Source of the DNA: Cellulomonas sp. Y8
GTDB lineage: Bacteria; Actinomycetota; Actinomycetes; Actinomycetales; Cellulomonadaceae
DNA: 64,000 bases
Direction of reading: 5' to 3'
Assembly: GCF_008033115.1 (NCBI RefSeq)
Contig: NZ_CP041203.1
Span: forward strand, 2,046,001 to 2,110,000
Of this stretch, positions 9,087 to 14,126 are shown in pieces. The position numbers and the translations under genes are program-made. Each line of letters begins with the position of its first letter. Position 1 is the stretch's first letter. The notes beneath the pieces were generated by a model. It was not told the origin of the DNA. It saw only the letters and a program-made list of their open reading frames with translations, and ran no database searches.

Positions 9087-11654
9087 ATGCCCGACGCCTC
9101 GACCAGCGCGCCGGCGGCGCCCGGTCGACCCGACGGGCCCGCCGCGGGCGCGCGCACGCAGGTGCCGCTCGACGGGCTGGGCCGCCCGCAGGTGCTCGAC
9201 ACCCCCGCGGTCCGGGTGCACCACCCGAGCGACCTGCTGGGCGTGGTGCTCAGCCTCGTCGGCGCCGTCGCGGTCATGGCGCTCGCGACGTACGCGCACA
9301 ACACGACGTCCGGCGTCGCGGAGGACGTGCAGGGCTTCGCGTCGCTGCTCCGGCAGATCCTCGTCGTGCCGGTCACCCTGCTCGAGACCGTCGTCACCTA
9401 CCTCGTGCCGATCGCCGTCCTGGCGGAGCTCGCGGTGCGCCGGCTCGGGCGGCAGATGGTCGAGGCCTCGATCGCCGCGATCGTCGCGGTGCTCGCGGCG
9501 GCGGGCGTCGCGTGGCTGGTCCAGCACCTCGGCTCGGACCAGCTGGTCGCCGGGCTCTCCGTCCGGCTCAACGGGCAGCTGACGCTGTCCATCCCCGAGT
9601 ACCTCGCGCTCATCGCCGGCCTGCTGACGGCGACCGGCCCGCGCAGCCGCCGCCGGACCGTCTCGTGGTCGTGGAACCTGGTCTGGGTCGCGGTCGGCGT
9701 CATGGTCATCACCGCGGGTGCCTCGCTGCCCGGCGTGGCGGTCGCGCTGCTGCTCGGCCGCGCCTCCGGCCTCGCCGTCCGGTACGTCTCGGGCGTCCGC
9801 TCGGAGCGCGCCTACGGCGCGAGCCTCCTGGCGGGCGTGCGGCGTGCGGGCTGGCAGCCGCGGGTCCTCGTGCGGGTGCCCGACGAGGACGACGACGCGG
9901 CGGACGACGCCGACCACCGCCCCGCCGCGCTGCAGGCCACCCCGGGGACCCCCGCCGTCGCGCCCAGCGCCGGCGCGCGGGCCGCGGTCCGGTACGCCGA
10001 GCACCGCGCGTACGAGATGGTCACCGAGGACGGCCAGGAGCTCGACGTGCTCGTGCTCGACGGCGACCGCCAGGTGATCGGCTTCCTCAGCCGGCTGTGG
10101 CGGTCGCTCCGCCTGCGCGGCCTGGACGGCCGGTCGGTCGTGTCGCTGCGGCAGGCCGCCGAGCGCGCCGCGCTGCTGTCGTACACCGCGACCGCGGCCG
10201 GCGTCCGCAACCCCGCGCTGCGCGGCATCGCCGAGGCCGACTCGTCGATGCTGCTGGTGCAGGACCCCGTCCCGGCCGCCACCTCGCTCGCGGACCTCGA
10301 CCCCGAGGTCATCACCGACGACGTGCTCCGCGCGATCTGGGGCCAGCTCGGCACCGCCCACGAGGCGGGGCTGGCGCACCGCGCGCTGACCAGCGACGTG
10401 ATCCTGGTGGCAGACGGCCCGGACGACCCGACCGTGTGGCTCGTCGGCTGGGACCAGGGCGACGTCGCCTCGTCCGAGCTCGCGCAGCGCATGGACCGGA
10501 CCCAGATGGTCGCGCTCCTCGCGCTCCGCGTGGGGCCCGCCCGCGCCCTGGAGTCCGCCGTGGCGGTGCTGCCCGAGGGCGACATCGCGGCGATCGGCCC
10601 GCTGCTGCAGACCATCACGCTCCCCCGCCGCACGCGCGAGGAGCTGCGCGTGCACAAGGAGGTGCTCGCCGAGCTCCGGTCCGCCCTGGTGGCGCGGCTG
10701 CCCGAGGCCGACGTCGAGCCCGTGCAGCTGGTCCGGTTCGGCGCGCGCGCCGTGCTGACGATCCTGCTGACGACGGCCGCCGTCATCATCCTGCTGACGT
10801 CGATCAACCTGCAGACGATCCTCGACGCGCTCTCGACGACCGACTGGCGGCTGAGCGTTCTCGCGTTCCTGCTCGGCATGGCGACGTTGTTCGGGGCGGC
10901 GCTGTCGCTAGTGGCGTTCTCCCCCGTCAAGCTGTCGCTGTGGCGCGCCTCGGTCGCGCAGTCGGCGTCGACGTTCGTGGCGCTCGCCGCGCCCGCGGGC
11001 ATCGGCCCGGCCGCGATCAACCTGCGGCTGCTGACCCGCCGCGGCACCTCGACCTCGCTGGCGACGGCGACCGTGGCGCTCGTCCAGGTGTCCCACTTCG
11101 TCGTGACGCTGCCGATGCTGCTGGTGCTGTCGGTCGCGTCCGGCACGAACCAGCTCGAGCGGTTCACGGTGTCCCCGACGGTGGTCGTCGTGATCGGCGT
11201 GCTCGCGGCGCTGATCGGCGCCGCGCTCCTGGTGCCGAAGGTGCGGCAGTGGGTCGCCGCCAAGACGCTGCCGACGGTGCAGCAGACCTGGCCCCGGCTC
11301 ATCGAGGTGGTCGGGCAGCCGTTCCGGCTCGCGGTCGGCCTCGCCGGCAACCTCATCACGACGTTCGGCTACATCCTCGCGTTCGAGGTGTGCCTGCTCG
11401 CGTTCAACCAGCACCTGTCCCTGGTGCAGGTCGCGATCGTCTACCTGGCGGGCAACACCGCCGGCTCGATCGCCCCGACGCCCGGCGGCATCGGCACCAC
11501 CGAGATCGCCCTCGCGGGCGCGCTGACGGTCATCGGCGTGAACCCCGGCGTCGCCACCTCCGTGGCGGTGCTGTTCCGGGTGCTGACCTACTGGCTGCGC
11601 ATCCCGGTCGGCTGGGCGTCGATGCGGTACATGCAGCGCGTCGGCGAGCTCTGA
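9087..11654 (+). CDS. LPG-synthase-TM (flippase-like) protein with degenerate kinase-like domain
   Basis: An 855-residue protein with three parts. Residues about 45-250 hold several membrane helices; about 290-520 form a soluble domain resembling an aminoglycoside/ABC1-type kinase; about 550-850 form the lysylphosphatidylglycerol-synthase transmembrane region (PF03706-like), ending in TPGGIGTTEIALAGAL. The kinase-like loop near 424-440 reads HEAGLAHRALTSDVILV, so the catalytic Asp of the HRD loop is replaced by Ala, and the DFG position is GWDQGD. It is probably a pseudokinase or ligand-binding module. A role in lipid or glycolipid translocation is inferred from the C-terminal family. The ATG lies 7 nt after TAGACT (leaderless type). 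Confidence 0.88.
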   Translation: MPDASTSAPAAPGRPDGPAAGARTQVPLDGLGRPQVLDTPAVRVHHPSDLLGVVLSLVGAVAVMALATYAHNTTSGVAEDVQGFASLLRQILVVPVTLLETVVTYLVPIAVLAELAVRRLGRQMVEASIAAIVAVLAAAGVAWLVQHLGSDQLVAGLSVRLNGQLTLSIPEYLALIAGLLTATGPRSRRRTVSWSWNLVWVAVGVMVITAGASLPGVAVALLLGRASGLAVRYVSGVRSERAYGASLLAGVRRAGWQPRVLVRVPDEDDDAADDADHRPAALQATPGTPAVAPSAGARAAVRYAEHRAYEMVTEDGQELDVLVLDGDRQVIGFLSRLWRSLRLRGLDGRSVVSLRQAAERAALLSYTATAAGVRNPALRGIAEADSSMLLVQDPVPAATSLADLDPEVITDDVLRAIWGQLGTAHEAGLAHRALTSDVILVADGPDDPTVWLVGWDQGDVASSELAQRMDRTQMVALLALRVGPARALESAVAVLPEGDIAAIGPLLQTITLPRRTREELRVHKEVLAELRSALVARLPEADVEPVQLVRFGARAVLTILLTTAAVIILLTSINLQTILDALSTTDWRLSVLAFLLGMATLFGAALSLVAFSPVKLSLWRASVAQSASTFVALAAPAGIGPAAINLRLLTRRGTSTSLATATVALVQVSHFVVTLPMLLVLSVASGTNQLERFTVSPTVVVVIGVLAALIGAALLVPKVRQWVAAKTLPTVQQTWPRLIEVVGQPFRLAVGLAGNLITTFGYILAFEVCLLAFNQHLSLVQVAIVYLAGNTAGSIAPTPGGIGTTEIALAGALTVIGVNPGVATSVAVLFRVLTYWLRIPVGWASMRYMQRVGEL

Positions 11655-11696
11655 CCCCACGCGCCGGCGCGCGGCGTCCGGCCTCCGGGCGCGCCG

Positions 11697-11731
11697 ACGG
11701 GCGCCCGGGGCGCGGCGGCGCGGGCGCCCGT
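11697..11731. terminator. Bidirectional hairpin between convergent genes
   Basis: ACGGGCGCCCG (11697-11707) pairs perfectly with CGGGCGCCCGT (11721-11731) around a 13-nt loop. It sits between the stop codons of the convergent flippase-like gene and the riboswitch-controlled small gene, so it can end both transcripts. Confidence 0.7.
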
Positions 11732-11742
11732 GGGGCGTGCGA

Positions 11743-11913
11743 TCAGGAGGCGGAGGTGCACTCGCGCTGCGCGGGCACGAGGTCCCCGTGCGTCGCGAGG
11801 GTCGCCGCGATGCGGGACCAGGAGGACAGGCGCGTCGCGCTGCGCCCCGTCACGTCGGAGCGGAGGTCGGAGCCCTCACGCTCGGCCGGCTCGTAGAAGC
11901 CGCGCTGTTCCAT
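11743..11913 (-). CDS. Small protein (56 aa) under c-di-GMP riboswitch
   Basis: A 56-residue hydrophilic protein starting MEQRGFYEP and ending QRECTSAS. ATG chosen because AAGGA lies 7 bases upstream and because it directly follows a c-di-GMP-I aptamer. It has no signal peptide or membrane segment; it is charged in its first half, with one Cys near the C-terminus. I recognise no family. The riboswitch implies that its output answers cyclic di-GMP, hence lifestyle changes such as attachment or motility. It ends 12 bases before a strong hairpin. Because it is short, a role as leader peptide or small regulatory protein is possible. Confidence 0.75.
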   Translation of the reverse strand: MEQRGFYEPAEREGSDLRSDVTGRSATRLSSWSRIAATLATHGDLVPAQRECTSAS

Positions 11914-11927
11914 GGCAGATCCTTCGT

Positions 11928-12008
11928 TCGGCAGCCCGGCTGACCTGCGGGGGTCCCGTGGCTTTGCGTCCCCTCCTCGCGGAGGGTTTGCCCTTGTCGC
12001 TGACACGG
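11928..12008 (-). ncRNA. Cyclic di-GMP-I riboswitch (GEMM)
   Basis: Read on the minus strand, the leader contains the class I c-di-GMP core: AAGGGCAAACC, a short GC hairpin capped by GCGA, then GGGGACGCAAAGCC, and after a short linker CAGGTCAGCCGGGCTGCCG. These match the universally conserved GGGCAAACC and GACGCAAAGCC segments and the tetraloop-receptor/P3 side of the aptamer. The 3' edge is 14 nt before the start codon of the 56-residue gene, next to its AAGGA site, so control may be at translation. No clear intrinsic terminator lies between aptamer and gene. Confidence 0.92.
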
Positions 12009-12065
12009 CGACTGTAGGCCCGGCGCCGGGCCGAGCGGAAGGGTGCTGCCGGGAAACTTCAGCCC

Positions 12066-12173: not shown

Positions 12174-14126
12174 TCAGGCGGCCGGCACCGCCACAGCCCG
12201 CAGGAACGACTCCAGCAGCGGCCCCGACGTCGTCGAGCCGAAGTCCCCGGTCTCGACGAACACCGCGACCGCGAGGTCGCCCTGCGCCGCGATCATCCAC
12301 GCGTGGTTCTGCAGGTCCTCCCCCGACCCGTACTGCGCCGTGCCCGACTTGGCGATGACCTCGGGCCCCGGCACGTCCTGCAGGAAGTCGCCGCCGCCCT
12401 CGGTCACCACGGCCCGCATCATCGACCGCAGCGCGTCCGCCTCGGCGGGCGTCAGCGGCTGGGCGGGCCCTGGCACGGCGGTCGCGGTCTCCGCCGCCCC
12501 GTCGAGCAGGAGCCGCGGCGTGACCCGCGCGCCTGCCGCCACCGACGCGGCGACCGTCGCCATGCCGAGCGGCGTCGCCTGGACGCGGGCCTGGCCGATC
12601 ATCGACGCGGCGTGGTCGGTGCCGCCGGTGGCCTCGGCCGGCACCTCGCCGAGCGTCGCCGCGAAGCCGAGGTCGGCGCCCGCCACCAGGCCGAGCGACT
12701 CCGCCGCGGCCGCGAGCGCCTCCTGCGGCGCCGTGCCCGCCGCGGTGAGGAACGCGGTGTTGCACGACTCGGCGACCGCCGTCCGCAGCGTGATGTCGCC
12801 CAGGGCGTCGGCCGGGTAGCCCGGGTAGTTCTGGAACGACCGGCCGTCGACGGTGGCGGTCTCCGGGCAGGTGACGGTGCTGTCCGGGGTCAGGCCGGCG
12901 CGCAGCAGCGCGAGCGAGGTCGCGACCTTGAACGTCGAGCCGGGCGCGTACAGGCCCAGCGTGGCCGTCGACATCCCGCCGCCGCCCGGTCCGCTGGCCG
13001 CGGCGAGCACGTCGCCGGTGGACGGCCGGATCGCCACGATCGCGCTCGCGCTGCCCACGACGGTGGCGACCAGGTCCTCCGCGGCCTGCTGCACCGCGGG
13101 GTCGAGCGTCGTGCGCAGCGGCGCGCCCACCTGGGGTTCCACGTGGAACAGCTCCCGCTCCTGCGCGCCGCCGGCGGTCGCGACCACCGTCAACCCGGGC
13201 TCGCCGCGCAGCTGATCGTCGAACTGCGCCTGCAGGCCGCTCAGGCCAGTGAGGTCGCCGGCGACGACGGCGCCGTCCGACTCCTCGACGATCTCGGCGG
13301 TCGCCTGGCCGACCGTCCCCAGCACCGGGCGGGCGAACGCGCGGCTGGGCGCCAGCGGCAGCGCGGTCTCGATCATGTTCACGCCCGGCACCACCGAGAG
13401 CGCGCCACGGTCGTACGCGGGGTCGTCGTCGCGCACCACGATCGCCTCGACGAACGCCTTCTCCCCCGCCGCGGCGACCTGGGCCGCGTAGGCGTCGGCG
13501 TCCAGGCCGAGGGCCGCCGCCAGCTCGCGCGCCGCCCCGTCCGCCTGCTCCGCCGGGACGCGGGTCTTGTCGATGCCGATCCGGAACACCGGGCGCGACT
13601 CGACGAGTACGGCGTCCCCCGCCCCGAGCACGTCCGCGCGCTCCGCCTGCACCCGGTGCACCTGCAGGGCCTCGCCGGCGGCGAGGTCCGGCGCGAGCAG
13701 CATCGACGACCACCGGGCGCGCCACTCGTCGTCGACCTTCGCCAGGTTCGCGTGCGTCGTGTACGTCCACGTGGTGGCGCTGCTGCCGACGTCCCAGGTG
13801 AAGGTCAGCTCGACCGACGCCGCCGCGTCGTCGTCCGCCGCCACCACGTCGCCGGCCGCGACCTCGGGCTGCCACGGGTCCAGACCCGCGTACGCGGCGG
13901 TGCGCGCCTCGCCCGCCTCCGCGGCGGTGGCGCCGTCGAGCGGGACGTCCGCGAAGTCGCCCGACGCGAGGGCGTCGGCGAGGGCGTCCGCGGTCCGCTG
14001 CCGGTCGTCCGGCCCGCCCGAGCACGCCGCCAGCGCCCCCACGAGCGCGAGCAGCACGCCGACCGCCACCCCGCGCCGCGCGGCGCCCCGACCCCCTGCG
14101 ACCCGCACCGACCTCACACGCCTCAC
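12174..14126 (-). CDS. Lipoprotein penicillin-binding transpeptidase
   Basis: A 650-residue class B-like PBP. It has a signal peptide with lipobox LAAC (about Cys35), an NTF2-like MecA N-terminal region (about 40-150), a dimerisation region, and a transpeptidase domain with the three active-site motifs: STFK near 395, SCN near 454, and KSGT near 590. It should cross-link peptidoglycan outside the membrane while held by a lipid anchor rather than a helix. A MecA-type N-terminal domain with lipid anchor is typical of actinobacterial accessory PBPs. The GTG start is the most upstream one giving a basic n-region. Regulation not evident. Confidence 0.92.
   Translation of the reverse strand: MRRVRSVRVAGGRGAARRGVAVGVLLALVGALAACSGGPDDRQRTADALADALASGDFADVPLDGATAAEAGEARTAAYAGLDPWQPEVAAGDVVAADDDAAASVELTFTWDVGSSATTWTYTTHANLAKVDDEWRARWSSMLLAPDLAAGEALQVHRVQAERADVLGAGDAVLVESRPVFRIGIDKTRVPAEQADGAARELAAALGLDADAYAAQVAAAGEKAFVEAIVVRDDDPAYDRGALSVVPGVNMIETALPLAPSRAFARPVLGTVGQATAEIVEESDGAVVAGDLTGLSGLQAQFDDQLRGEPGLTVVATAGGAQERELFHVEPQVGAPLRTTLDPAVQQAAEDLVATVVGSASAIVAIRPSTGDVLAAASGPGGGGMSTATLGLYAPGSTFKVATSLALLRAGLTPDSTVTCPETATVDGRSFQNYPGYPADALGDITLRTAVAESCNTAFLTAAGTAPQEALAAAAESLGLVAGADLGFAATLGEVPAEATGGTDHAASMIGQARVQATPLGMATVAASVAAGARVTPRLLLDGAAETATAVPGPAQPLTPAEADALRSMMRAVVTEGGGDFLQDVPGPEVIAKSGTAQYGSGEDLQNHAWMIAAQGDLAVAVFVETGDFGSTTSGPLLESFLRAVAVPAA

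What the first reader, a model, noticed from the sequence alone, without database searches (positions are those of the whole stretch)
11743..12008. c-di-GMP-I riboswitch controlling a 56-residue gene of unknown function
The minus-strand leader contains both invariant GEMM-I core segments (GGGCAAACC, GACGCAAAGCC) and the receptor/P3 side, ending 14 nt from a start codon with its own AAGGA site. The only gene it can serve is a 56-residue hydrophilic protein with no recognised family, closed by a strong hairpin. A dedicated second-messenger switch on such a small gene suggests a small effector of lifestyle change.
Basis: partly seen in the sequence, partly recalled or inferred. Interest (0 to 1): 0.8.

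Follow-up and report, generated by a model that had tools for sequence, protein, structure and literature searches.

The report
c-di-GMP riboswitch with dedicated microprotein
A short RNA switch of the class that senses the bacterial signal c-di-GMP sits directly in front of a tiny protein gene of unknown function, and the two are found together across Cellulomonas and some related bacteria, so this looks like a real, dedicated signal-to-small-protein unit.

Summary
The anatomy is confirmed. Rfam finds one structured RNA in the window, c-di-GMP-I-GGC (RF03167, 68.5 bits, cut-off 59), at 12001-11926 minus; standard c-di-GMP-I also scores 65.4, cut-off 35. A 56-codon ORF starts 12 nt later with AAGGA. 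It matches nothing in Pfam, NCBIfam, PHROGs or PDB, yet belongs to a real, fast-evolving family: 108 profile matches in 221 genomes of the taxonomic family, 105 directly behind an aptamer; the other three are marginal. The locus is syntenic in the genus (56 of 61 loci), and dN<dS in 15 of 15 pairs near the window's gene. A -10-like box lies 5-8 nt before the first P1 nucleotide in 66 of 70 leaders (shuffled 4.6), so the predicted leader is little more than aptamer plus Shine-Dalgarno: translational control is likeliest, direction unresolved. The same aptamer precedes bldC in the genus and fliA/whiG in two genomes. A P-x-Q motif recurs in the microprotein, FliA N-tail and BldC C-tail, a weak lead. 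Ligand and protein function were not tested.

The parts
12011..12016 (-). -10-like box TACAGT, 6 nt before the predicted start of transcription
   Evidence: Sequence; a TANNNT box 5-8 nt before GT[CT][AG] occurs in 66 of 70 small-ORF leaders against 4.6 in shuffled flanks. Inferred, no TSS mapping.
12004..12004 (-). predicted first transcribed nucleotide, G of GUCAGCGA
   Evidence: Inferred from the conserved spacing to the -10-like box
11926..12001 (-). c-di-GMP-I class aptamer (RF03167 c-di-GMP-I-GGC; also RF01051)
   Evidence: Rfam 68.5 bits; RF01051 65.4 bits; covariation in P2 and P3 over 115 distinct aptamers
11920..11924 (-). Shine-Dalgarno sequence AAGGA, beginning one nucleotide after the aptamer model ends
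   Evidence: Sequence
11743..11913 (-). 56-codon microprotein gene (P0001)
11683..11742 (-). G+C-rich hairpin directly after the stop codon, possible transcript end
   Evidence: -39.5 kcal/mol, z -2.1; no U-run
12174..14126 (-). upstream neighbour on the same strand: penicillin-binding protein (PF00905, PF03717, PF05223)
   Evidence: conserved neighbour in part of the genus
9087..11654 (+). convergent neighbour: membrane protein with PF03706 (LPG_synthase_TM)
   Evidence: conserved neighbour in 53 of 61 genus loci

Best explanation
A c-di-GMP-I class riboswitch controls translation of a dedicated, monocistronic microprotein. Transcription starts at the first nucleotide of the aptamer's P1 strand (inferred). 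The aptamer fills nearly the whole leader of about 91 nt and ends right at the Shine-Dalgarno sequence. With no room for a terminator before the start codon, ligand binding most likely changes ribosome access (or mRNA stability) rather than transcription elongation (inferred). I lean to c-di-GMP switching the gene OFF (about 60:40), because the stabilised P1 abuts the Shine-Dalgarno and because the same leader type stands before a flagellar-type sigma gene in two genomes, which high c-di-GMP would classically silence; the direction is not shown. The product is probably a short-lived regulatory peptide: one helix around an invariant W, then a conserved P-x-Q tail and often a C-terminal Ala-Ala. 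It belongs to one c-di-GMP regulon with bldC, and in two genomes also fliA/whiG. The aptamer, the gene's reality, its conservation and the obligate pairing are shown; ligand, direction and function are inferred.
For: Aptamer; covariation and invariant boxes over 115 distinct aptamers. Real gene: 13 of 81 genus genomes with strong P0001 matches, each right behind an aptamer; 108 profile matches in 221 genomes, 105 directly behind an aptamer; synteny in 56 of 61 genus loci; dN<dS in 15 of 15 pairs of 6 related sequences. Blind database search: 122 matches, 120 listed, none with a precomputed Pfam domain, named ones 'hypothetical protein'. Promoter spacing: 66 of 70; leader 90-95 nt to AUG. Ligand is plausible: 17 GGDEF matches in the own genome. 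Peptide shape: helix 16-41, mean pLDDT 70.9, pTM 0.36.
Against: No binding, expression or ribosome data. Rfam's best model is the variant family c-di-GMP-I-GGC, whose ligand I could not look up. No conserved anti-Shine-Dalgarno partner was found: native pairings are no better than swapped ones (1409, 905, 243 and 292 of 2000 permutations as good), only P1 extension in the small class stands out (7 of 2000; 195 of 2000 for bldC). The accessibility model gave small differences and is biased by its own constraint. Over all 2228 usable pairs the median dN/dS is 0.79, with 1498 below 1, so constraint on the protein is weak at depth. The model of the peptide is low-confidence.
Confidence: 0.72

Rival explanations
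1. The ORF is only a leader peptide or mRNA-stability device; the riboswitch acts on the neighbouring gene.
For: The protein evolves fast (median dN/dS 0.79 over all usable pairs) and its middle is variable in length and sequence.
Against: The next gene downstream is convergent (9087-11654 +), so there is no gene to lead into; the frame, start and C-tail are kept, with M1, W32, A36, P47 and Q49 invariant in 50 of 50 aligned sequences, and dN<dS in 15 of 15 close pairs.
Confidence: 0.12
2. The aptamer senses a different ligand (for example another cyclic dinucleotide) rather than c-di-GMP.
For: Best Rfam model is the separate variant family c-di-GMP-I-GGC.
Against: RF01051 also matches far above its cut-off (65.4 against 35), for L316 and two more loci it is the better model, and the boxes that hold the recalled c-di-GMP contacts (G20, A47, C92, numbering recalled) are the usual ones in the family here: CGCAAAG in 115 of 115, CCGA in 115 of 115 distinct aptamers, both required in part by my search pattern. 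17 GGDEF matches in the genome.
Confidence: 0.12
3. The transcript works mainly as RNA: an antisense to the 3' end of the convergent PF03706 gene, gated by the aptamer.
For: Convergent arrangement, kept in 53 of 61 genus loci; 88 bp between the two stop codons.
Against: A hairpin follows the stop codon; protein-level conservation and a well-formed start site would be unneeded; related genera keep aptamer plus ORF.
Confidence: 0.05

Closest known systems
c-di-GMP-I (GEMM-I) riboswitches, RF01051 and its variant family RF03167 c-di-GMP-I-GGC
   Same: Covariance score above cut-off for both, P2 with GNRA loop, P3, core boxes, position directly upstream of a gene.
   Different: Very short leader without room for a terminator, predicted start of transcription at the first P1 nucleotide; output is a lineage-restricted microprotein. 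No ligand data.
BldC family (NF033787)
   Same: bldC follows the same aptamer in this genome and across the genus; BldC ends in a similar P-x-Q tail (49 of 50 distinct BldC).
   Different: The microprotein has no MerR-like HTH; profile comparison aligns elsewhere, p 0.089.
FliA/WhiG sigma factors and the RsiG-(c-di-GMP)-WhiG switch
   Same: In two genomes the same aptamer stands directly before a FliA/WhiG gene; the sigma N-tail carries a [VIL]P-x-[QP] motif in 50 of 50 genus loci read.
   Different: RsiG is a protein c-di-GMP receptor (passages of PMC8325347); here control is by RNA, and the microprotein has none of the sigma regions. I did not search for RsiG.

Membership tests
c-di-GMP-I riboswitch | Covariance score above the curated cut-off | tested here: met
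   RF03167 68.5/59, RF01051 65.4/35
c-di-GMP-I riboswitch | P2 and P3 supported by covariation; P2 closed by a GNRA loop | tested here: met
   115 distinct aptamers: GNRA in 115; P2 pair 4 seen as GC, TA, AT and CG, P3 distal pair 2 as AT, GC, TA and CG. 10 cells at these two pairs or P2 pair 1 are non-standard (AC, TC, CA).
c-di-GMP-I riboswitch | Binds c-di-GMP | not testable with these tools
   No ligand assay. Genome has 17 GGDEF matches.
c-di-GMP-I riboswitch | Acts in cis on a downstream gene by an expression platform | tested here: inconclusive
   Position met in 105 of 108; no conserved switching partner for the Shine-Dalgarno.
BldC family | MerR-like HTH (NF033787) | tested here: not met
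   P0001: 0 NCBIfam and 0 Pfam families
FliA/WhiG sigma factor | Sigma-70 regions 2-4 | tested here: not met
   P0001: 0 Pfam families; the aptamer-led FliA/WhiG P0122 has them
Leader peptide / uORF | Short ORF ahead of a co-directional gene | tested here: not met
   Downstream neighbour is convergent in the window and in 53 of 61 genus loci

The most novel reading that the evidence does not exclude
The microprotein is a c-di-GMP-gated peptide antagonist (or chaperone) of the FliA/WhiG sigma factor and perhaps BldC: its W-helix plus P-x-Q-R tail imitates the conserved G-V-I-P-x-Q-R motif in the disordered N-tail of FliA and the V-P-x-Q tail of BldC, and competes for the same partner. In this lineage the role that the protein receptors BldD and RsiG have in Streptomyces would be carried by three RNA switches (bldC, microprotein, sometimes fliA).
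Probability: 0.1. Interest if true: 0.82.

Novelty: new variant of a known kind. Interest (0 to 1): 0.55.

Why it matters
It gives an undescribed protein family an input signal before it has a function: found in the family only behind this aptamer, a gene that makes c-di-GMP signalling in non-sporulating actinobacteria testable. It also shows bldC, a developmental regulator known from Streptomyces, under an RNA switch across a genus, which my searches did not find in print (0 papers with bldC, riboswitch and c-di-GMP in the held open-access library; subscription papers are mostly missing there).

Tried and rejected
Expression platform: I tested three alternative pairings by swapping partners between loci. 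P1 extension (5' GUC with post-aptamer GAC) is better than swapped in the small-ORF class (7 of 2000) but not clearly for bldC (195 of 2000); Shine-Dalgarno with the P3 3' strand (1409 and 905 of 2000) and a local hairpin (243 and 292 of 2000) are not supported. Relatedness of sequences was not controlled. A 7-bp pairing of GCAGGUC with GAUCUGC seen by eye in the window's own leader was therefore not used. SD accessibility with P1 forced or forbidden: P1 on more open in 13 of 68 and 13 of 56, but the 'forbidden' constraint itself frees partners of the SD.

Other FliA N-tails carry the same motif without an aptamer, and G013 and G027 also have a separate aptamer plus microprotein, so I dropped 'fusion': the aptamer simply also precedes fliA there.

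P-x-Q-R as a specific motif: the own genome holds 87 matches to the DNA pattern for [VI]PxQR against 133 for the backward control, so no enrichment. Profile comparison microprotein/FliA tail p 0.0064 but probability 5.9%, microprotein/BldC p 0.089 aligned elsewhere, FliA/BldC p 0.06. My own class 'small' required a [VIL]P.[QP] motif, so its 64 of 65 is circular; the invariance rests on A2.

Plasmid records: no match to P0001 at E 1e-5. No solved structure.

Full report
Observation. The minus strand of 11743-12016 reads: -10-like TACAGT (12016-12011), GUCAG, aptamer, AAGGA, ATG, 56 codons, stop, hairpin. cmscan of the window against Rfam gives one match at gathering, RF03167 c-di-GMP-I-GGC, 68.5 bits. 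The ordinary c-di-GMP-I model RF01051 gives 65.4 bits at the same place in the own genome.

Gene. P0001 has no match in Pfam or NCBIfam, PHROGs or, as profile A2, in the PDB sequences. In the genus, 31 of 81 genomes match at E<=0.1, 13 of them strongly (E 7e-19 or better); all 13 lie right behind an aptamer, and so do several of the weak ones. Reading the frames behind the fetched aptamers showed a family of 38-66 residue proteins with ends of the type MDQRG... and ...W..hA...VPxQRE..AA. A profile (A1, 26 sequences) found 122 database proteins, 120 listed, none with a precomputed Pfam domain; those with a source name are called hypothetical protein, mainly of Cellulomonas and Actinotalea. In A2 (P0001 and 49 of the 120 listed hits) M1, W32, A36, P47 and Q49 are invariant.

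Pairing with the aptamer. Profile A2 gave 108 matches at E<=0.001 in 102 of 221 genomes of the family, 5 of 25 genera. 95 have a listed RF03167 place directly upstream on the same strand (window -70 to +130 nt, list, which were capped). For the other 13 I took the DNA: 10 have a c-di-GMP-I class aptamer there, two of them as RF03167 below its gathering score and three best as RF01051; 3 have none. Those three are the marginal matches G069:2068201, G150 and G068:2806746 (E 5e-4 to 8e-4, frames of 401-1197 aa). So 105 of 108. Caveat: the seeds of the profile came from ORFs behind aptamers; the database step was blind to them. The profile missed members that other calls show (G009, G073).

Conservation. 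In 61 genus loci with distinct leaders, 56 also hold the window's convergent PF03706 gene (53) or its penicillin-binding protein (17); five (L149, L161, L168, L220, L254) show neither, three of them (L161, L168, L254) being extra copies and the stretches short. Among six sequences near the window's gene dN<dS in 15 of 15 pairs; over all 2228 usable pairs the median is 0.79 and 1498 are below 1, with saturated divergence in many.

Distribution. RF03167 is matched in 79 of 81 genomes of the genus, 116 of 221 of the family in 7 of 25 genera, and 157 of 396 sampled from the phylum (large searches use stricter filters). Nine named contigs hold near relatives of P0001: seven titled Cellulomonas (one of them a MAG), one Cellulosimicrobium cellulans, one Micrococcales MAG.

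Other targets. The second copy in the own genome precedes bldC. Of 139 distinct leaders collected, 70 precede the small ORF, 56 bldC, 2 fliA/whiG and 11 others (mostly the genus, with some related genera; classes set by simple motif rules, the small class by a rule that includes the P-x-Q motif). In the phylum sample targets differ: many secreted proteins and some pilin-like frames (my reading of the translations). In G013 and G027 the aptamer precedes a FliA/WhiG gene; these two also keep an aptamer plus microprotein elsewhere. FliA/WhiG was found in 77 of 81 genus genomes. G004 has neither aptamer nor FliA match nor microprotein, but G045 has the microprotein and no FliA match, so co-occurrence says little.

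Aptamer. Over 115 distinct aptamers P2 and P3 vary with kept pairing, all P2 loops are GNRA, and the A47 and C92 boxes are constant, partly by my search pattern (position numbers recalled from the Vc2 structure, not from a call). 17 GGDEF matches in the genome make the ligand plausible.

Leader. A TANNNT box lies 5-8 nt before GT[CT][AG] in 66 of 70 small-ORF leaders against 4.6 in shuffled flanks; spacer 7 in 54. For bldC the same test gives only 12 of 56 against 4.4; those leaders show CATAGT instead. From the predicted start the distance to AUG is 90-95 nt. No terminator fits before the start codon, so translation is the likely level. The switching partner is not identified.

Function. The AlphaFold model is one helix, residues 16-41, mean pLDDT 70.9, pTM 0.36. 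45 of 65 distinct small proteins end in Ala-Ala, like an ssrA-type degron (recalled), but the window's ends in Ala-Ser. The motif [VIL]P-x-[QP] is in the N-tail of FliA in 50 of 50 genus loci read, the window's own genome included as IPRQQ, and [VIL]P-x-Q in the last 15 residues of 49 of 50 distinct BldC, with R after it in 36; the own BldC has VPQQA. This is the ground for the novel reading. Against it: no enrichment in the own genome (87 to 133 for the control), weak profile similarity, and the BldC structure paper, of which I saw passages, places head-to-tail contacts elsewhere (PMC5859096).

Literature. Seen as search listings; passages: PMC12452182 and PMC7266159, PMC5859096, PMC8325347. 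The paper I believe defined the GGC variant (Weinberg 2017, recalled) is not held. I found no paper on this unit or on a bldC riboswitch in these searches.

Noticed in passing
G000:C1:3826621-3826695 (L001 1501-1575): Second aptamer of the genome, directly before bldC; the same arrangement across the genus.
   Followed up: partly
L154, L188 (genomes G013, G027): The same aptamer directly before a FliA/WhiG sigma gene; RNA control of a flagellar-type sigma factor.
   Followed up: partly
L187-L216, L261-L280: Conserved [VIL]P-x-[QP] motif (often GVIPxQR, sometimes doubled) in the otherwise variable N-tail of FliA/WhiG, 50 of 50 loci read.
   Followed up: partly
L028, L030, L113, L155, L162, L225: Aptamers before large secreted proteins (frames beginning with signal-like stretches, sharing LLFGAFVA or a close variant); not scanned for domains.
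   Followed up: no
L230 (genome G076): The frame behind the bldC-type aptamer starts like bldC and then departs from it; bldC looks disrupted there, or the assembly has an error.
   Followed up: no
L097, L105: RF03167 in other actinobacterial groups 115-124 nt before frames with a pilin-like GFTLIELMVVILIIGI start.
   Followed up: no
P0024, P0037: Deposited versions of the microprotein carry an N-terminal extension that is a read-through of the aptamer: start codons placed too early.
   Followed up: no
L260 (genome G089): A divergent BldC-like 66-residue protein behind an aptamer that keeps only the end VPTQVR clearly.
   Followed up: no
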